Origin: Filomicrobium sp.
GTDB lineage: Bacteria > Pseudomonadota > Alphaproteobacteria > Rhizobiales > Hyphomicrobiaceae
Assembly (NCBI GenBank): GCA_017792465.1
Contig: CP051234.1
Coordinates: 124,001 to 188,000, forward strand
DNA: 64,000 nt
Reading direction: 5' to 3'
In this document: piece by piece, positions 24,866 to 38,372 of the stretch
How the letters are laid out: each line of letters starts with the position of its first letter
How positions within the stretch are numbered: the first letter of the stretch is position 1
The notes under the pieces: model-generated
The model's input: only the letters and a program-made list of their open reading frames with translations
Databases searched by the model: none
Told to the model about the DNA's origin: nothing
Made by a program: the position numbers and the translations under genes

Positions 24866-25462
24866 ATGAAAAAGATCGCTCTCATCCTTGCAGCCATCAT
24901 CTCCGCTGCCACTTTCTTCAAGGTCGACTCTGCAGAAGCAGGCGGCCGTCGCATGAACTTCGGCTACCCGCTGGGTTCGTTCCACGCTTCCAACCATTCG
25001 GGTGGCCATCACTCGAGCCACAACAGCTACCGTGCTCGCAAGGCCGCTCAGCGCCGCGCAGCAGCTCGTAAGGCCGCCGCTCGCCGGGCCGCAGCACGTA
25101 AGGCCGCCGCTCGCCGCAAGATCGCAGCTCGTAAGGCTGCCGCAGCCAAGGCTCAGAAGCTCGCTGAAATCCGCAAGGCAAAAGCTGAGAAGGCTCAGCA
25201 GGCGGCCAAGGTCGAGAAATCGAACGAAGATCATGAATGGCATGCTCCGGTTCGCGCTTCGGCAATCGCTGGCACCAACACACTGAACTTCCGCAAGAAA
25301 ACGTCTGCTCCTGCAGAAGTTGAGCTGGACCTGAAAGACACGACGCCGGAATTCAAGCTCGGTGATGACGACAAGGCTGATGATCTTGCGGTCGCTGAAC
25401 TGGCCTGCAAGCGCTACATCCCAAGCGCAGGACTGACGGTCACCGTTCCCTGCGGCGAGTAA
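24866..25462 (+). CDS. Exported Lys/Arg/Ala-repeat protein, paralogue 1 of 3
   Basis: 198 residues. Sec signal peptide (1-25, MKKIALILAA...SAEA), then the conserved block MNFGYPLGSF (30-39), a His/Ser-rich patch (HSGGHHSSH), a basic repeat about 53-110 built from Arg/Lys-Arg/Lys-Ala-Ala-Ala units, the conserved ASAIAGTNTLNF near 132-143, an acidic linker, and the C-terminal CKRYIPSAGLTVTVPC (181-196) whose two Cys could form a disulfide. The repeat resembles histone-H1-like tails, but the signal peptide places it outside the cytoplasm. AAGGA precedes the ATG. A strong terminator follows, so it is probably its own transcript. Family and function not recognised. Confidence 0.85.
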   Translation: MKKIALILAAIISAATFFKVDSAEAGGRRMNFGYPLGSFHASNHSGGHHSSHNSYRARKAAQRRAAARKAAARRAAARKAAARRKIAARKAAAAKAQKLAEIRKAKAEKAQQAAKVEKSNEDHEWHAPVRASAIAGTNTLNFRKKTSAPAEVELDLKDTTPEFKLGDDDKADDLAVAELACKRYIPSAGLTVTVPCGE

Positions 25463-25491
25463 AACTCAAAGCCAACCTTCTCGCGAAGGAA

Positions 25492-25528
25492 GCGGCGCCA
25501 GCCTTAACCAAGGCCGGCGCCGTTTTTG
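25492..25528 (+). terminator. Rho-independent terminator after paralogue 1
   Basis: GC-rich stem CGGCGCC-A-GCCTT / AAGGC-C-GGCGCCG, loop AACC, followed by TTTTTG. It lies 30 bases after the stop and separates paralogue 1 from paralogue 2. Confidence 0.85.
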
Positions 25529-25573
25529 TTTGTGCTGTGGCCTCGTGCTAGCTTTAAAAGGTGAGTTCTATGC

Positions 25574-25579
25574 TATACT
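25574..25579 (+). promoter_or_regulatory. Possible -10 box for paralogue 2
   Basis: TATACT, 44 bases before the ATG and just after the terminator of paralogue 1. A TTTAAA lies 15 bases upstream as a weak -35 candidate. The placement fits an independent promoter; the evidence is only the hexamer match. Confidence 0.25.
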
Positions 25580-25622
25580 TTCTCCTCGGGGGCCCTTCTG
25601 GGCGATTCAGCAAGGATTTTCG

Positions 25623-26252
25623 ATGACGCGCTTGGCAGTCTTGATCGTCGCTCTCGTGTTTTCCGTGTCGGCATTGATTGCTGGCGCCGCGGTGGCTGGA
25701 GATAAGAAACTCAATTTCGGGTATCCGCTCGGATCGTTCACGGCCAAGTCGCACTCCGACAGCGGGCACAACGGCTATTCTTCGAAAGCAAAACGCCGTG
25801 CTGCCGCGAAACGCAGGGCAGCAAAAAGGGCGGCCGCCCGCAAAGCCGCAGCGCGTAGGGCTGCGGCGCGGCGAGCGGCGGCCCGTAAGGCCGCGGCCCG
25901 CAAACAGGCTTTGCAGCGATCGAAGACGAAAAAAGCCGCTGTGGCACGTGACGACAAGAACCGCGATGATTCAGCGGAGAAGCAAACGGCCAAAAACAGC
26001 GAAGAGGATGATGATAACGGGGGCAGAACAGCTCCGGTTCGGGCGTCATCGATTGCCGGCACCAATACGCTGAACCTTCGTGACAAAGACGATGAGCCCA
26101 AGGCTGATTCTGCTTCGAGCGGGACGTCCAATGCATCGCGCGAGCCGGTCGACGTTGTTTCCGCTTCAGATACCGAAAAGCCTGCCGACGATGGCAAGAC
26201 CTGCAAGAAATACGTCCCAAGTGCAGGTCTGACGGTCAACGTGCCCTGCTGA
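25623..26252 (+). CDS. Exported Lys/Arg/Ala-repeat protein, paralogue 2 of 3
   Basis: 209 residues with the same plan as its neighbours: signal peptide (1-25), LNFGYPLGSF, a basic Arg/Lys-Ala repeat about 50-105, ASSIAGTNTLNL, a Ser/Asp/Glu-rich acidic linker, and C-terminal CKKYVPSAGLTVNVPC ending at the last residue. The acidic linker is longer than in the other two. ATG 25623 follows AAGGA; the in-frame extension to 25530 reads through the region of the terminator and promoter and is rejected. Function unknown. Confidence 0.84.
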   Translation: MTRLAVLIVALVFSVSALIAGAAVAGDKKLNFGYPLGSFTAKSHSDSGHNGYSSKAKRRAAAKRRAAKRAAARKAAARRAAARRAAARKAAARKQALQRSKTKKAAVARDDKNRDDSAEKQTAKNSEEDDDNGGRTAPVRASSIAGTNTLNLRDKDDEPKADSASSGTSNASREPVDVVSASDTEKPADDGKTCKKYVPSAGLTVNVPC

Positions 26253-26572
26253 TAGCGTCTTCTGCGAACCAGGGCAGGAGTTTTGTTGGCTTGGGCGCTT
26301 GGTCGTGCCCATTTCCGATCAACCCTAATACCTTAGAGATCTCGGTTTCTTACCGAGTTTAATTTCGGTTCGTCCCGGCCGGACTGCGATTTTGCACGAG
26401 TTTTTTTGGGGGCTTGTTTATTAGGTTTTTTCGAATTTGAGCCGAGAGTCCCCCCGGTGACAGCGGCAAAACCCCAGCTGCTGCAATCTCCTTTTCAACG
26501 ACGCGGCCGGACCTCTAGACAAACGCCCGGCCCGGACAACCACAAACAAAAGATTTGAAAAGGACGAGGGCA
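26253..26572. other. Intergenic region between paralogues 2 and 3
   Basis: 320 bases. A short hairpin CTCGGT/ACCGAG (26341-26357) followed by TTTAATTT may end paralogue 2. The A+T-rich stretch 26400-26440 could hold the promoter of paralogue 3. No open frame of interest. Confidence 0.35.
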
Positions 26573-27241
26573 ATGAAGATCACAGCAAACATTCTCACCG
26601 CAATTGCAGCCGCCACGGTTGCTTTCTGCGCGACGGTTCCGGCCCAGGCTGGTGGAAAGCGCCTGAACTTCGGTTATCCGCTCGGCTCTTTCGTTGCAAA
26701 GGACCACTCGGGTGGTTCGTCACGTTCCGGCTACAGCAATCATTCGTCCCGCAAGGCCGCCGCACGCCGCGCTGCCGCTCGCAAGGCTGCTGCACGCAAA
26801 GCCGCGGCTCGGAAGGCTGCTGCCCGTAAGGCCGCCGCTCGGAAGCATGCTGCCCAGAAGGCCGCTGCCCGCAAAATCGCGGCCCGCAAGGCTGCTGCCA
26901 AGAAGCAAGCTGCTGCAGTCGCCCGTCAGCGCGCGGCTCAAAAGAAGCTGGCCGAACGCAAAAAGACTGCGAAGAAGCCGCTGCCTAAGCAAATCGCTTC
27001 GAAAGAGACTGAAAAGAGCGAAACGGAAACAACGGTTTCCAGGAACGCTCCGGTTAAGGCTTCCGCGATTGCCGGCACCAATACGCTGAATTTTGAAGAC
27101 AAGACTGAAGTTGCAGCCAAATCGGACGTCGAAGACGAGATCGTTTCTGATGAAGGCAAGGTCAGCAATAACGGCCAGTTGACCTGCAAGAAGTTCATCC
27201 CGAGTGCAGGCCTGACGATCACAGTGCCTTGCGGTTCGTAA
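26573..27241 (+). CDS. Exported Lys/Arg/Ala-repeat protein, paralogue 3 of 3
   Basis: 222 residues, the longest and most regular member. Signal peptide (1-26), LNFGYPLGSF, HSGGSSRSGYSNHSS, then a nearly continuous five-residue repeat (Arg-Lys-Ala-Ala-Ala and variants) about 60-115, reflected in DNA as a 15-base period, followed by a Lys/Gln helix. Then ASAIAGTNTLNF, an acidic linker, and CKKFIPSAGLTITVPC (205-220). GGACGAGGG precedes ATG 26573. Ends before a perfect terminator and is followed by the ABC-exporter genes. Family not recognised. Confidence 0.85.
   Translation: MKITANILTAIAAATVAFCATVPAQAGGKRLNFGYPLGSFVAKDHSGGSSRSGYSNHSSRKAAARRAAARKAAARKAAARKAAARKAAARKHAAQKAAARKIAARKAAAKKQAAAVARQRAAQKKLAERKKTAKKPLPKQIASKETEKSETETTVSRNAPVKASAIAGTNTLNFEDKTEVAAKSDVEDEIVSDEGKVSNNGQLTCKKFIPSAGLTITVPCGS
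26757..26910 (+). repeat. 15-base coding repeat (Arg-Lys-Ala-Ala-Ala) in paralogue 3
   Basis: Roughly ten consecutive degenerate 15-base units of the kind CGCAAGGCTGCTGCC. Codons vary (CGC/CGT/CGG, AAG/AAA, GCC/GCT/GCG) while the residues stay fixed, which indicates selection on the protein rather than recent slippage. Similar shorter arrays lie in the two upstream paralogues. Confidence 0.75.
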
Positions 27242-27267
27242 CTTAAAACGTGAGCAAAAGCAGAAAG

Positions 27268-27306
27268 CCGCGCCAATCTTGTTATGATTGGCGCGGTGGT
27301 TTTTTC
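27268..27306 (+). terminator. Rho-independent terminator after paralogue 3
   Basis: Perfect 11-bp stem CCGCGCCAATC / GATTGGCGCGG with a 7-base loop and a run of T residues three bases later. It separates the repeat-protein array from the exporter operon. Confidence 0.9.
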
Positions 27307-27403: not shown

Positions 27404-28603
27404 ATGCAAGCCAGCAGCGCAGCAATGGACGGGGCCGAGGCGGCCGCAGCCGGAAAAGGGACGCGTCGCCTGCGGATGGCGCCAAAACTGGCCTATCGCA
27501 ACCTATTTCATGACCGTATCAGTTTGTTTGTGACGCTGATCGGTATCGTGTTTTCGGTTGTTCTTTTGTCTTTCCAGTCGGGCATCTATCTGGGGATCGA
27601 ACGGACAATCGCTGCCGTGATCGACCAGACGAAGGGTGAACTATGGGTTTTGCCGATCGGCACCAAGAGCGTCGATGACCCCTCGCTGCTGCCTGGCCGC
27701 GAAAAATATTCGGTGCTTTCCGTCCCTGGCGTGAAGAACGTTGAAACGCTGGCCATGGGCTTCTCGCGCTGGCGCAAGCAGCACGGCGGGGCGACGACGG
27801 TCCTGGTTGTCGGCTCTGACTGGAACTCTGGCGGGTTGAAGCCGTGGAACGTCATCGAGGGTAGCGTTGATGAGCTGGCCGCGCCGAAAGCGGTTGCGGT
27901 CGATAAGACCTACTTCAAGGATCTCGACGTCGAAGGCCTTGGGGCGCCGGCGGAAGTCAACGGTATGACGGTGACAGTCGGGGCGGTGACCAACAAGATC
28001 CGCTCGTTCACGACGATGCCTTACGTCTTCACGACCCTGCAGAGGGCGCAGATCATGCTTGGCGCCAATAAGGAGCAGGGGTCCTACAATCTCGTGACGG
28101 TTGAAGACGGTGCCGACGTCGACAAGGTGCAAGAAGACATCCAGGCGCGCTTGCCGGATGCGGAAGTGCTTAAACGCGACACGTTCCGCAGCCGCAGCAT
28201 CAACTACTGGTTGTTCCATACCGCCGCAGGGTCGGGTCTGATTGCAGGCACCGCACTTGCGATCATTGTCGGGATCGTGATTGTCGCGCAAACCCTCTAT
28301 GCAAGTACCAAAGACCACTTGAACGAATTTGCGACATTGCGCGCGCTTGGGGCTTCGGCCGGCTACATCATTCAGGTCATTTTGTTGCAGGCCTTGTTCA
28401 GCGCGATTGTCGGATATGGGCTCGGGATGGCTTTGACGCTGGCCATCTTCAAGGCGGCGGAGAATACGACACTCAACGTTGTGATGACACCGGGACTGGC
28501 CGGTGTGTTGTTCCTGCTGACGATCGCCATGTGCATGCTGGCCGCAATTTCGGCGATCTTCAAAGTCATCCGGATCGATCCGGCGGGCGTCTTCAGCAGG
28601 TAA
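27404..28603 (+). CDS. ABC exporter permease, DevC/MacB-like (FtsX fold)
   Basis: 399 residues. N-terminal helix about 40-62, a large periplasmic domain about 63-270, then three C-terminal helices (about 275-300, 325-350, 360-385), the FtsX/MacB topology. The sequence (LAYRNLFHDRISLFVTLIGI, TLRALGAS) is of the DevC type known from cyanobacterial DevBCA. It should work with the ATPase and membrane-fusion genes just downstream. ATG 27404 has AGAGGTG upstream; the TTG six bases earlier is in frame but less likely. The substrate is unknown. Confidence 0.88.
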   Translation: MQASSAAMDGAEAAAAGKGTRRLRMAPKLAYRNLFHDRISLFVTLIGIVFSVVLLSFQSGIYLGIERTIAAVIDQTKGELWVLPIGTKSVDDPSLLPGREKYSVLSVPGVKNVETLAMGFSRWRKQHGGATTVLVVGSDWNSGGLKPWNVIEGSVDELAAPKAVAVDKTYFKDLDVEGLGAPAEVNGMTVTVGAVTNKIRSFTTMPYVFTTLQRAQIMLGANKEQGSYNLVTVEDGADVDKVQEDIQARLPDAEVLKRDTFRSRSINYWLFHTAAGSGLIAGTALAIIVGIVIVAQTLYASTKDHLNEFATLRALGASAGYIIQVILLQALFSAIVGYGLGMALTLAIFKAAENTTLNVVMTPGLAGVLFLLTIAMCMLAAISAIFKVIRIDPAGVFSR

Positions 28604-28737: not shown

Positions 28738-29511
28738 ATGAGCCAATCCAAAGGGGCCAAAAGCAGCGCTGAGCCGCTGCTTGTCGCCAAGAATATTATC
28801 AAGGTGTTTGGGACGGGCGCTGGTGAAGTGCAGGTTCTCAAAGGGGTGGACCTGGATTTGAAGCCGGGAGAATTGACGCTTCTGATGGGGCCGTCGGGCA
28901 GCGGCAAGACAACGCTGTTGTCGATCCTGGGCTGCATCTTGCGCGAGACGTCGGGGACGCTTGAAGTTGCAGGCTACAAGACGTCAGGCATGAGTGCGGA
29001 AGCGATGGCGAACCTGCGCCGGCACCACGTCGGATTTGTCTTCCAGTCCTACAACCTGTTTCCGACGCTGACAGCGGTTGAAAACGTCATGCTGGCGCTC
29101 GATGTGCGCGGACGTATGCCAGCAGATGCGCCGCTCAAAGCGACAAAAGCGCTTGAATCGGTCGGCCTGTCGCATCGTATCAACACGTATCCTTCCAAGC
29201 TTTCAGGCGGTGAGAAGCAGCGTGTCGCCATCGCGCGCGCCCTTGCAGGATCGCCGTCGGTGATGCTGGCGGACGAACCGACCGCCGCGCTCGACAGTGA
29301 AAACGGCCAGGCCGTGATGCAGCTGATGTCGGATGTTTCCAAAGACAACAGCCGCGCGGTTCTTGCGGTGACGCACGACCACAGAATTCTGAAATACGCT
29401 GATCGCATCATTCGCATTGAGGATGGCGTGATCTCGACCGATGAGCGGCCAAAGGCAGCTCAGGAACGCGCTGCGAAGGCGGCTAAGCTCGCCGAAACCG
29501 CGGCCGAATAA
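28738..29511 (+). CDS. ABC exporter ATP-binding protein, DevA/MacB/LolD-like
   Basis: 257 residues. Walker A GPSGSGKTTL near 51-60, Q loop in FVFQSYNLFPTL, signature [15 protein letters not shown], Walker B VMLADEPTAALD, and a His in VTHDHRI. The MacB/LolD branch of ABC ATPases that drive tripartite or FtsX-type exporters. C-terminal 20 residues Ala/Lys-rich. GAAGGA precedes the ATG. Middle gene of a permease-ATPase-adaptor operon. Confidence 0.93.
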   Translation: MSQSKGAKSSAEPLLVAKNIIKVFGTGAGEVQVLKGVDLDLKPGELTLLMGPSGSGKTTLLSILGCILRETSGTLEVAGYKTSGMSAEAMANLRRHHVGFVFQSYNLFPTLTAVENVMLALDVRGRMPADAPLKATKALESVGLSHRINTYPSKLSGGEKQRVAIARALAGSPSVMLADEPTAALDSENGQAVMQLMSDVSKDNSRAVLAVTHDHRILKYADRIIRIEDGVISTDERPKAAQERAAKAAKLAETAAE

Positions 29512-29539: not shown

Positions 29540-30556
29540 ATGAAACGTATGCTTTCTTTAGTTCTGGCGCTTGGCCTTGTCGGCGGTAGCGCGATTTTGC
29601 CAAATGCTTTCGGCACTTCGGCCCCGGCAATGGCTGCCGAAGAAGGCCCCGACTGGGTTGTCGCGGCGCCTGGGCGTGTCGAGCCGAAGAATGGCATGGT
29701 CAATATCGGCACGGCGATCATCGGCCGGGTGGCCGAAGTCTACGTCGCGCTCAACGATGAAGTCGAAGAAAACGAGCTTTTGTTGAAGCTGGACGATGCC
29801 GAAGCGCGGGCACGCCTGGCTGCGGCTGAGACGCAGGCCGACGTTCGCGAAAAGGCGCGCGATGACGGCAAGCTCAGCTCCGACCGCAAGGAAGTGCGCG
29901 ATGCCGAAGACGAGGTTTACCGCGCCGAACGTGCGGCGACGGGGGCTCGTATCGAACTCGACTATGCGCTTTCTGGCCGTCGCGCTGGCACGGTGACGGA
30001 ACGCACCCTGCGCAACTCGCGCCGCCGCCTTGAGCAGGCAAACGAGCGTGTGCAGAATGCGCGCGTTAAAGTTGCTCGTGCTCAGGCGGATCCAAACCTG
30101 CCGGCTCCGACACCGGCTGAAGCTGCTGTCAGTGAAGCGCGTGCGCAGGTGGCGATTGCCGAAGCACTCCTCGACAAGACGCGTGTTCGTGCTCCCGGAG
30201 CTGGCCGTGTTCTCATTTTGCGTGCGAAGTCGGGCGAGATGGTTGCGCCGTCTCCGATGCAGCCGCTGGTCGTGATCGGCGATATGAGCGGCCTACAGGT
30301 GACGGCCGAAGTCGATGAAGTCGATGTTGCCAAGGTGGAAGTCGGGCAGAAGGCTTACGTCAAGTCGATCAGCTATCCCGACAAGCAGTTCGAAGGCAAA
30401 GTCGCGAAGGTCGCCCCGGCGCTGGCGCGCCCTGAAATTACCCAGCGTGGGGCTCGCCGTCCGACCGACGTCGAGATCCTGGAAGTCACGATTGAGCTTG
30501 AAGGGGATGTTCCGCTGTTGCCGGGCATGCGGATAGACGCCTTTTTTCGTAAATGA
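29540..30556 (+). CDS. HlyD-family periplasmic adaptor, DevB-like
   Basis: 338 residues. Signal peptide or anchor (1-33), a split biotinyl-lipoyl domain (WVVAAPGRVEPKNG... and ...KTRVRAPGAGRVLILRAKSGEMV), a long alpha-helical hairpin about 95-220 rich in Ala, Arg and Glu, and a C-terminal beta-barrel. It would bridge the permease to an outer-membrane channel; no TolC gene is in the window. ATG 29540 begins a natural signal peptide. Terminator downstream. Confidence 0.9.
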   Translation: MKRMLSLVLALGLVGGSAILPNAFGTSAPAMAAEEGPDWVVAAPGRVEPKNGMVNIGTAIIGRVAEVYVALNDEVEENELLLKLDDAEARARLAAAETQADVREKARDDGKLSSDRKEVRDAEDEVYRAERAATGARIELDYALSGRRAGTVTERTLRNSRRRLEQANERVQNARVKVARAQADPNLPAPTPAEAAVSEARAQVAIAEALLDKTRVRAPGAGRVLILRAKSGEMVAPSPMQPLVVIGDMSGLQVTAEVDEVDVAKVEVGQKAYVKSISYPDKQFEGKVAKVAPALARPEITQRGARRPTDVEILEVTIELEGDVPLLPGMRIDAFFRK

Positions 30557-30945: not shown

Positions 30946-31203
30946 ATGCACGGACGCATCATCAAATTCGACGAAACGCTGAAAGTTGGTGTCATCAAAA
31001 CGCCTGATGGTCAGAAGTACCGCTTTGCGCGCGATCAGGTCGTCAATCCGAATGGCCGCTTTGTCGGTTACGAGGTCGACTTCCTAAAGCCTGTTGCAGG
31101 TGCTCCGGCCGGTGACGTCATTCTGATGACCGGTTCGATTTTTTCGGTTTTCGGTCGCGAAGAAGCAACTGGCAAAGCTGACAGCGCCGGGAGGACTTCG
31201 TGA
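30946..31203 (+). CDS. Small OB-fold / cold-shock-like protein
   Basis: 85 residues. The opening HGRIIKFDETLKVGVIKTPDGQKYRF mimics the first beta strands of a cold-shock domain (G.IK.F....G.I..), but the aromatic RNP residues are only partly kept, so nucleic-acid binding is uncertain. GGAG stands 8 bases before the ATG. Its stop codon overlaps the start of the next gene by one base (TGATG), indicating translational coupling. Confidence 0.72.
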   Translation: MHGRIIKFDETLKVGVIKTPDGQKYRFARDQVVNPNGRFVGYEVDFLKPVAGAPAGDVILMTGSIFSVFGREEATGKADSAGRTS

Positions 31204-31652
31204 TGCAGGCGGTTCTCGATCCCAAAGACGTTGCTCTTTCCGGTGCTCCTGAAATGCGCCTTGCATTGCAGGCTGTCATCCAGGCCGGTCGCTCGGGCGT
31301 TTTTATGCGCGGTGCGCAAGAGCGCGATCGTGTGATCGTTGAAGAGCAGTTTTGGAAAACCTACGAAGGCCGCAAGGATCGCGGTGGGATTGCTCTCATC
31401 CGTCTGTGGTATCTGGTTGAAGCGATGCAGGCGCGCCGTCTTCAGGATCTGTTTCTGGGTGAAGGCTATGCGTTCCTGGAGACTGCTGTGATGGCGGCAG
31501 CAACTTTACGGCTCAACATGGATTGGGGTTTTGCACCTCAGCGTCTGATCTGGTCGATCGACAGGGTCAAGGCAGCACGTGCGGTCACCCGTCTGGGTCG
31601 TACTCAGCGTCTTAGCCGCCCGGTGGCGATGGCGCAAACGGTTGCAGCTTAA
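31203..31652 (+). CDS. Hypothetical protein coupled to the OB-fold-like gene, 149 aa
   Basis: A soluble, mostly helical protein rich in Arg, Ala and Leu, with no recognised domain. The TGATG overlap with the preceding gene implies that the two products are made in fixed ratio and may act together. Conserved-looking stretches include EEQFWKTYEG and MDWGFAPQRLIWSIDR. No signal peptide or membrane segment. Confidence 0.65.
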   Translation: MQAVLDPKDVALSGAPEMRLALQAVIQAGRSGVFMRGAQERDRVIVEEQFWKTYEGRKDRGGIALIRLWYLVEAMQARRLQDLFLGEGYAFLETAVMAAATLRLNMDWGFAPQRLIWSIDRVKAARAVTRLGRTQRLSRPVAMAQTVAA

Positions 31653-37457: not shown

Positions 37458-38081
37458 TCAGCTGCGGCCGAGAACGGTGACGGTGACCGGAACGACGCCG
37501 GCGTTCTGCATGCCGATTTTGTAGGCGGCTGCCTTCGACAAGTCGATGATGCGACCTTTAATGTAAGGACCACGGTCGTTGATGCGAACGACAACCGATC
37601 GGCCGTTGTGTTTGTTGGTGACGCGGACGCGGGTGCCGAATGGCAACGATTTGTGCGCGGCAGTCATCGCGTTCGGGTTGAACCAACCGCCCGAAGCGAC
37701 ACGCTGAGGCTGCCAGTAGTAGGACGCTTTACCGTAGAGCGTGCCGCCACCGGAGTAGCGCTTCTTGCCATACGACTTCTTGGCGTACTTGCGCGTTTTT
37801 TTGCCGTAGCTCTTCTTGGTGTAGCGCTTCTTGTATTTCTTCTTCGAAGAGCCGTAGTACTTCTGCTTTGCGTAACGGTTCTTCTTGTAGGCCTTTTTGC
37901 CCGAAGAGCGCGCTGCGCGGTAAGCGCGCTTCTTGTATTTGCGAGCCGATTTGGCCGAGTGATAGACGTTGCCGTTGCAGGCGTAGCTTGGGCCGTTGCA
38001 CTTCCATTTAGCGGAAGCGGGTGCAGCCGAAATTACCCCGAACGTCAGTAGTGCGATGAGTGCAACAAAGATCTTGCGCAT
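37458..38081 (-). CDS. rlpA: Septal ring lytic transglycosylase RlpA with Lys/Tyr-rich linker
   Basis: 207 residues. Signal peptide (1-23), a short Cys-containing segment ([10 protein letters not shown]), a very basic Lys/Tyr-rich linker about 40-110, and a C-terminal DPBB domain with [22 protein letters not shown] and [18 protein letters not shown], keeping the conserved His and Asp. It should cleave glycan strands lacking stem peptides. No SPOR domain; the cationic linker may bind the negatively charged wall instead. AGGGAG precedes ATG 38081; the upstream extension of the frame is rejected. Confidence 0.9.
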
Positions 38082-38372
38082 GTAAAACTCCCTGCGTTGG
38101 CGACAGTGTTGCGGCGCAGCAATTCTCTCGTCCGGAAGAGCGGTGCTCTGCCGACTGAAGGATTTTGCGAACTCAGTGTTAATCCCACTCGTTTTGTGAG
38201 TTTGTGAGTTATAGTGCCACCGCAACGTAACGCCAGAAACCTATCTGTCGTCATGCTAATCGGGAGTGCCGGCCGCATCGCGCAGGGCCTTCCCGTCTGG
38301 CGGCGGGGAAGCAACAACGACTGGGCGCTATCGTCAAGGTTTCTATTTGTGATTTTTGTTTCAGTTAGGTCT

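What the first reader, a model, noticed from the sequence alone, without database searches (positions are those of the whole stretch)
24866..27241. Tandem array of three exported Lys/Arg/Ala-repeat proteins of no known family
Three paralogues in a row share a signal peptide, an (M/L)NFGYPLGSF block, a basic Arg/Lys-Ala repeat, an A(I/S)IAGTNTLN(F/L) block, an acidic linker and a Cys-flanked C-terminus. The basic section looks like histone-H1-type tails but is exported. I know of no described family with this plan. A cationic rod outside the cytoplasm could bind LPS, peptidoglycan, polyphosphate or extracellular DNA; this is inference.
Basis: partly seen in the sequence, partly recalled or inferred. 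Interest (0 to 1): 0.85.

Follow-up and report, generated by a model that had tools for sequence, protein, structure and literature searches.

The report
Hairpin-tagged exported proteins with ABC pump
Three neighbouring genes in a budding bacterium encode exported, positively charged rod proteins that all end in the same 16-residue two-cysteine tag, and across their bacterial family proteins with this tag sit directly beside one particular membrane pump, which suggests an undescribed route for putting proteins on or outside the cell surface.

Summary
Observation confirmed: three paralogous ORFs (24866-25462, 25623-26252, 26573-27241) with all the blocks described. Pfam and NCBIfam hits are compositional matches to the rod; none covers the conserved blocks. 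The genus is Filomicrobium (Hyphomicrobiaceae).

The conserved part is the last 16 residues (C-K-[KR]-[YF]-[IV]-P-S-A-G-L-T-[VI]-x-V-P-C in the window), not the basic rod. In relatives it also ends TPR, YARHG, glycine-rich and acidic proteins; 70 of 70 distinct motif ORFs stop 0-4 residues after the second Cys. A broadened profile finds it in 82 of 103 family genomes, with only weak, chance-like hits outside. AlphaFold makes it a beta-hairpin and the rod one helix.

Downstream lies a DevC/DevA/DevB (MacB-type) exporter. 72 of 74 examinable loci of this devC clade have a tagged ORF directly upstream; 0 of 74 listed loci of the sister clade do. MacB-type pumps can expel Sec-exported, disulfide-bonded proteins from the periplasm.

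Best model: two-step secretion, Sec then DevBCA/TolC, the hairpin being the recognised tag (inferred, about 0.5).

The parts
24866..25462 (+). tagged exported protein 1 (P0001, 198 aa)
25623..26252 (+). tagged exported protein 2 (P0002, 209 aa)
26573..27241 (+). tagged exported protein 3 (P0003, 222 aa)
24866..24940 (+). signal peptide of protein 1, predicted cleavage AEA|GG
   Evidence: sequence; read by eye and simple script, no SignalP
25623..25697 (+). signal peptide of protein 2, predicted cleavage AVA|GD
   Evidence: sequence; by eye
26573..26650 (+). signal peptide of protein 3, predicted cleavage AQA|GG
   Evidence: sequence; by eye
26738..26971 (+). basic RKAAA rod of protein 3, one predicted helix (residues 56-133)
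   Evidence: AlphaFold, pLDDT 95-98 in the blocks 61-130; period-5 basic residues
25406..25453 (+). C-terminal Cys hairpin tag of protein 1 (CKRYIPSAGLTVTVPC)
26202..26249 (+). C-terminal Cys hairpin tag of protein 2 (CKKYVPSAGLTVNVPC)
27185..27232 (+). C-terminal Cys hairpin tag of protein 3 (CKKFIPSAGLTITVPC); predicted strands 204-209 and 214-219
25488..25527 (+). intrinsic-terminator-like hairpin after protein 1
   Evidence: fold -27.9 kcal/mol, z -4.3; not in the list of the pattern scan
27267..27297 (+). intrinsic-terminator-like hairpin after protein 3, before devC
   Evidence: z -4.7
27404..28603 (+). DevC/MacB-type ABC permease (devC-1 clade)
   Evidence: TIGR01185 146 bits (below cut-off 290), Pfam MacB_PCD and FtsX above cut-off; clade
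28738..29511 (+). DevA-type ABC ATPase
   Evidence: TIGR02982 241 bits (cut-off 296), Pfam ABC_tran above cut-off
29540..30556 (+). DevB/HlyD-type periplasmic adaptor (start codon chosen by eye)
   Evidence: TIGR02971 102 bits (cut-off 129), Pfam HlyD_D23 and HlyD_3 above cut-off
31200..31652 (+). 150-aa protein of unknown family that recurs near devB in some relatives; link to the system uncertain
   Evidence: no Pfam family

Best explanation
The three genes encode Sec-exported cell-envelope proteins that end in a disulfide-closed beta-hairpin tag. In the periplasm the signal peptide is removed (AxA|G), the two Cys of the tag join, and the neighbouring DevBCA/MacAB-type tripartite pump recognises the hairpin and drives the protein through a TolC-type channel to the cell surface or medium, where the helical rod does its work. 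Shown here by computation: exported-looking precursors, a strictly C-terminal tag on varied bodies, a hairpin in the model, restriction to one bacterial family in the samples searched, tight neighbourhood with one devC clade. Inferred: disulfide formation, recognition of the tag by the pump, passage across the outer membrane, and the job of the rod outside.
For: Tag at the very C-terminus in 70 of 70 distinct motif ORFs, with basic-rod, Gly-rich, TPR, YARHG and acidic bodies. 53 of 70 have exactly two Cys outside the crudely guessed signal peptide. AlphaFold: hairpin 204-209/214-219, pLDDT 75 and 85 in the two blocks. A tagged gene upstream on the same strand of 45 of 76 devC-1 loci by the first profile, nearest gap 52-716 bp, and of 0 of 74 listed devC-2 loci; 27 of the 29 others that could be examined have an ORF with a variant tag there, so 72 of 74. 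One such ORF (L163) has a quite different body but keeps tag and place. Co-occurrence in 103 genomes: both 74, devC-1 only 1, tag only 8, neither 20. MacB pumps expel Sec-exported, DsbA-oxidised STII (passages of PMC5985334 and PMC8277102), and the MacAB-like Aat system secretes Sec-exported Aap/CexE (passages of PMC7943197).
Against: No experiment. 68 of 142 first-profile tag hits do not lie within 6 kb upstream of a devC-1, and 8 genomes have a tag without devC-1. A terminator-like hairpin separates protein 3 from devC, so they need not be co-transcribed. Conserved order within one family may be partly shared descent; the Fisher tests ignore phylogeny, and the wider profile was partly built from tags seen beside devC-1 (the unbiased first profile gives both 49, tag only 5, devC-1 only 26, neither 23). 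The described DevBCA exports glycolipids, not proteins (PMC8277102 passages). Positions that differ between devC-1 and devC-2 do not cluster in the periplasmic domain (5 positions, 2 of them there). No TolC gene was seen in the cluster; it was not searched for genome-wide.
Confidence: 0.5

Rival explanations
1. Periplasmic or envelope structural proteins: the helical rod spans or fills the periplasm like a TolA-type stalk and the hairpin docks on a fixed envelope partner; DevBCA exports an envelope lipid needed at the same place and is not their exporter.
For: Known DevBCA exports heterocyst glycolipid (PMC8277102 passages); an alpha/beta hydrolase gene stands upstream of the tagged genes in 19 of 31 fetched relative loci, which would suit lipid work; terminator-like hairpin between protein 3 and devC; 68 of 142 first-profile tag hits lie elsewhere.
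Against: The bodies change (no basic rod in some, TPR in others) while tag and pump neighbourhood stay, so a rod function cannot be the common theme.
Confidence: 0.27
2. Cationic polymer binders: the rod binds extracellular DNA, LPS or polyphosphate, and tag and pump are incidental.
For: Net charge of the mature part +17, +18 and +29 in the window proteins; histone HC2-like composition. As a job for the exported Filomicrobium proteins it is compatible with the best model.
Against: Net charge near zero or slightly negative in several members of other genera with the same tag; the match to HC2 is confined to the low-complexity rod.
Confidence: 0.1
3. Sensors or regulators of the pump: the tagged proteins bind DevC in the periplasm and gate it or are worked by it, as partners of FtsEX are, with the hairpin as docking element.
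For: Linkage with the devC-1 clade only; FtsEX is proposed to regulate extracytoplasmic amidases (passages of PMC5985334).
Against: One to four tagged genes per cluster and many more elsewhere, with unrelated bodies; a gate would be expected to be a single conserved protein.
Confidence: 0.1

Closest known systems
Aat/Cex system with Aap (dispersin) and CexE (Enterobacterales), PMC7943197
   Same: Sec-exported precursor cleaved before Gly-Gly (CexE), substrate gene sometimes within 1 kb of the MacAB/Lol-like pump genes, two-step secretion
   Different: There the N-terminal glycine is acylated by AatD, an Lnt homologue; here one LNT_N gene was found in the own genome, and the shared mark is a C-terminal Cys hairpin, not mentioned for Aap/CexE in the passages read
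MacAB-TolC with enterotoxin STII, PMC5985334 and PMC8277102
   Same: Sec export, disulfides made in the periplasm, expulsion by an FtsX/MacB-fold pump
   Different: Cargo there is a small peptide and no shared C-terminal tag is mentioned in the passages read; here cargo would be roughly 125-310 aa with varied bodies
DevBCA-HgdD glycolipid exporter of Anabaena, PMC8277102
   Same: The DevC, DevA and DevB models are the best-scoring NCBIfam models for permease, ATPase and adaptor
   Different: All three score below the curated cut-offs; gene order is C-A-B, not B-C-A; tagged proteins stand upstream; no glycolipid evidence
C-terminal sorting tags: MYXO-CTERM/myxosortase (PMC11980579), GlyGly-CTERM, PEP-CTERM
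   Same: Short C-terminal tag shared by otherwise different exported proteins in one lineage
   Different: MYXO-CTERM has a transmembrane helix and an Arg-rich end (abstract of PMC11980579; the same for the others is recalled); here the protein ends just after the second Cys of the tag and no membrane helix follows
Histone H1-like proteins HC2 / Burkholderia H1-like
   Same: Lys/Arg/Ala repeat
   Different: Those are cytoplasmic DNA binders (recalled); here there are signal peptides and a hairpin, and similarity is confined to the low-complexity rod

Membership tests
Histone H1-like HC2 (PF07382) | score above the curated cut-off | tested here: inconclusive
   P0003 46.0 bits against 40; P0001 22.7, P0002 28.9, fourth paralogue 20.3, all below; match lies over the rod
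Histone H1-like HC2 (PF07382) | cytoplasmic nucleoid protein without signal peptide (recalled) | tested here: not met
   signal-peptide-like N-termini with AxA|G sites in the three window proteins; [AV]xA|G in 50 of 66 complete tagged proteins; export itself not shown
DevBCA exporter | DevC, DevA and DevB curated model scores | tested here: not met
   146/290, 241/296, 102/129 bits; best-scoring NCBIfam model in each case, but below cut-off
MacB/FtsX-type (type VII) ABC exporters | MacB periplasmic core domain and FtsX permease domain, ATPase, HlyD-type adaptor | tested here: met
   PF12704 56.2 bits (27), PF02687 49.8 (25.5), PF00005 116.5 (25), PF16576 56.8 (30)
MacB/FtsX-type (type VII) ABC exporters | partner outer-membrane channel (TolC type) | not tested
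   none seen in the cluster; not searched genome-wide
Aat/CexE glycine-acylated proteins | Gly-Gly at the mature N-terminus | tested here: met
   window proteins 1 and 3 AxA|GG, protein 2 AxA|GD; cleavage by eye, base rate in this genome not measured
Aat/CexE glycine-acylated proteins | dedicated second Lnt-like acyltransferase (AatD) | tested here: not met
   one LNT_N match in the own genome; an AatD without a recognisable LNT_N domain would be missed
Aat/CexE glycine-acylated proteins | acylation of the N-terminal glycine | not testable with these tools
   needs mass spectrometry
CTERM sorting tags (PEP-, GlyGly-, MYXO-CTERM) | transmembrane helix plus basic cluster after the signature | tested here: not met
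   the protein stops 0-4 residues after the second Cys in 70 of 70, 9 in one later case

The most novel reading that the evidence does not exclude
A dedicated two-step secretion pathway of Hyphomicrobiaceae in which a C-terminal 16-residue disulfide-closed hairpin is a portable export tag that a devC-1-type MacB/DevBCA pump reads in the periplasm, so that proteins of any body (rods, TPR, YARHG) are sent out by one pump.
Probability: 0.4. Interest if true: 0.82.

Novelty: new variant of a known kind. Interest (0 to 1): 0.66.

Why it matters
MacB-type pumps are widespread, yet how they pick protein cargo is unclear. Here one devC clade keeps company with proteins that share little but a 16-residue C-terminal hairpin; if the hairpin is the address label, this gives a simple, transplantable system in which cargo recognition by such pumps can be tested, and it names a likely part of the surface proteome of a family of budding bacteria.

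Tried and rejected
Histone-like DNA-binding protein as family: rejected, matches only the rod, and signal peptides are present. Array as a local oddity: rejected, the same order recurs in other genera. Structural relatives: in the PDB by sequence profile only two weak low-complexity hits; by Foldseek with the model none; phmmer with DevC gave none at E <= 0.001. Specificity residues in the DevC periplasmic domain: no signal. Glycine acylation as in Aat: left as a lead, only one Lnt-type gene; a base rate for Gly at +1 in exported proteins of this genome was not measured. Rfam and tRNA scans of the window: nothing. The first genome-contig scan, with P0003, found nothing; the second, with DevC, named the genus. 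Ten literature searches listed no paper that by title or abstract start describes this tag or these proteins; that holds for this open-access library and these terms only. Papers seen: PMC4424283, the first of two parts of the text (to reference 19); PMC8277102, PMC5985334 and PMC7943197, passages only; PMC11980579, abstract and outline; all others in search listings only.
Full report
What is there. Three ORFs in tandem on the + strand, 24866-25462, 25623-26252 and 26573-27241, encode proteins of 198, 209 and 222 aa that align over their whole length. Each has a signal peptide ending AxA|G, a (K/R)(K/R)(M/L)NFGYPLGSF block, a Lys/Arg-Ala rod with basic residues at period 5, an APV(R/K)AS(A/S)IAGTNTLN block, an acidic linker and a last block CK(K/R)(Y/F)(I/V)PSAGLT(V/I)xVPC. 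Pfam and NCBIfam give compositional hits to the rod, histone-like models first. A fourth paralogue with a glycine-rich N-terminal part is at genome position C1:272985-273563, and two exported-looking TPR proteins at C1:3857360 and C1:3852172 end in the same kind of block.

The conserved element is the C-terminal tag. A profile of 22 such ends (A3) finds hits at E <= 0.001 in 54 of 103 genomes of the window's family, in 18 of 25 genera. In a class sample of 385 genomes only the own genome hits, but the table shows no other member of its family in that sample. In an order sample of 297 genomes 9 hit at E <= 0.02: seven are in the family, out of the 13 family genomes that the table lists; two outside (0.006 and 0.016) are partial matches in frames of 28 and 98 aa. 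A broader profile with variant tags (A6, 26 ends) finds 82 of 103 genomes of the family at E <= 0.001 and, in an order sample of 397 genomes at E <= 0.005, 20 genomes: 18 of the 21 family genomes listed and two outside with partial hits in 37- and 69-aa frames. Among the loci in hand, 70 distinct ORFs of at least 80 aa match a regular expression for the tag, and in all 70 the stop codon comes 0-4 residues after the second Cys; these loci were fetched because they hold the tag or the proteins, but its place in the protein was not selected for. A later case has a tail of 9. The bodies differ: NFGYPLGSF plus rod, glycine-rich plus rod, TPR, YARHG, WCDEDC-type acidic, and others. Net charge of the mature part runs from +47 to -6 in complete proteins (the cleavage site there is a crude guess), so the strongly cationic rod belongs to some genera and not to the family. 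50 of 66 complete proteins (four fragments dropped) show [AV]xA|G near the end of the signal peptide; at least three of the 16 misses come from a late start codon chosen by my script.

Structure. AlphaFold2 on an alignment of 14 Filomicrobium-group sequences gives one helix at residues 56-133 and a beta-hairpin with strands 204-209 and 214-219, Cys205 and Cys220 at its ends; mean pLDDT 71, pTM 0.35, most of the linker below 50. Low-complexity helices often get high confidence (recalled), so the rod should be read with care. No PDB relative was found.

Neighbourhood. Downstream stand a DevC-type permease with MacB core and FtsX domains, a DevA-type ATPase and a DevB/HlyD-type adaptor. The order [alpha/beta hydrolase, in 19 of 31 loci] - tagged gene(s) - devC - devA - devB recurs in relatives; the 31 loci shown there were mostly chosen because they hold tagged genes, and in some a contig ends or a part was not detected. 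To test the link without that choice I searched the 103 genomes of the family with DevC: 99 hit at E <= 1e-60, 73 of them with two or more loci. I call devC-1 the 76 loci with 447 bits or more (75 genomes) and devC-2 the 74 further loci listed (the listing is cut). In a FastTree of 34 devC-1 and 15 devC-2-like sequences, eight of the latter from outside the family, the two groups split cleanly; no support value was obtained. A tagged gene by profile A3 lies within 6 kb upstream on the same strand at 45 of 76 devC-1 loci (nearest gap 52-716 bp; 28 loci with one, 7 with two, 8 with three, 2 with four) and at 0 of 74 devC-2 loci. Of the other 31 devC-1 loci two are at contig edges (G004, G735) and were not read. 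The 29 others were read directly: 27 have in that place an ORF ending in a two-Cys tag, with variants such as CRRYSAAIAGLVDVPC in genus g11 (in G034 only the end of the ORF is on the contig); two do not (G022 contig 61; G048, where part of the stretch reads N). So 72 of 74. The 13 devC-2 stretches read in the same way hold no such tag, only three chance C-x14-C ends, and seven family devC-2 loci and eight devC-like loci of other families read on both strands hold none but one chance antisense ORF. Co-occurrence by A3: both 49, tag only 5, devC-1 only 26, neither 23, Fisher p 1.8e-5; by A6: 74, 8, 1, 20, p 6e-14. Neither test corrects for shared descent, and A6 includes tags that I had found beside devC-1. 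Against a simple operon: a terminator-like hairpin lies between protein 3 and devC and another after protein 1.

Organism. Filomicrobium is in Hyphomicrobiaceae. The published Ca. F. marinum genomes are 3.97 Mb (PMC4424283), the window's genome 4.47 Mb, so it is probably another member of the genus.

How it most likely works. MacB-type pumps do not carry cargo across the inner membrane; they take it from the periplasm. STII enters by Sec, is oxidised by DsbA and leaves through MacAB-TolC (PMC5985334, PMC8277102, passages). Aap/CexE enter by Sec; CexE is cut before Gly-Gly, and it leaves by the MacAB-like Aat system after glycine acylation (PMC7943197, passages). The tagged proteins match this plan: Sec-type signal, a Cys pair, adjacent MacB/DevC-type pump. 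Because bodies change while tag and pump stay together, the tag is the best candidate for what the pump sees. The steps from disulfide to secretion are inferred. The main rival is that the proteins stay in the envelope and DevBCA handles a lipid.

Compared with what is known. It works like Aat/CexE and MacAB/STII, but the shared mark is at the C-terminus and no second Lnt-type enzyme was found in the own genome. It resembles CTERM sorting tags in being short, C-terminal and portable, but lacks a membrane helix. I file it as a new variant of a known kind, with the portable-tag secretion pathway as the bolder reading.

Noticed in passing
window 37458-38225 (-): An exported-looking RlpA-type DPBB protein (PF03330, 97 bits) carries a long Lys/Arg/Tyr-rich stretch between signal peptide and domain, another basic exported segment in the same window.
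   Followed up: partly
L009 3355-4356 (-) and L016 523-1560 (+); genome C1:3857360 (-) and C1:3852172 (+): Two exported-looking TPR proteins with the same kind of C-terminal tag about 5 kb apart, near genes that look like a Ser/Thr kinase and an adenylate cyclase (by eye).
   Followed up: partly
genome C1:3445116-3446252 (+): A second devC paralogue (devC-2), found in most family genomes and, as similar sequences, in 8 genomes of other families in an order sample of 199, without tagged neighbours; cargo unknown.
   Followed up: partly
L163 (G033 contig 20, 1-1400): A tagged protein directly upstream of devC-1 with a wholly different, His-rich and Trp-containing body, a natural body swap.
   Followed up: no
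L056 7641-8492 (+) and equivalents: An alpha/beta hydrolase (Hydrolase_4) is a recurrent upstream neighbour of the tagged genes (19 of 31 loci), mostly outside Filomicrobium.
   Followed up: partly
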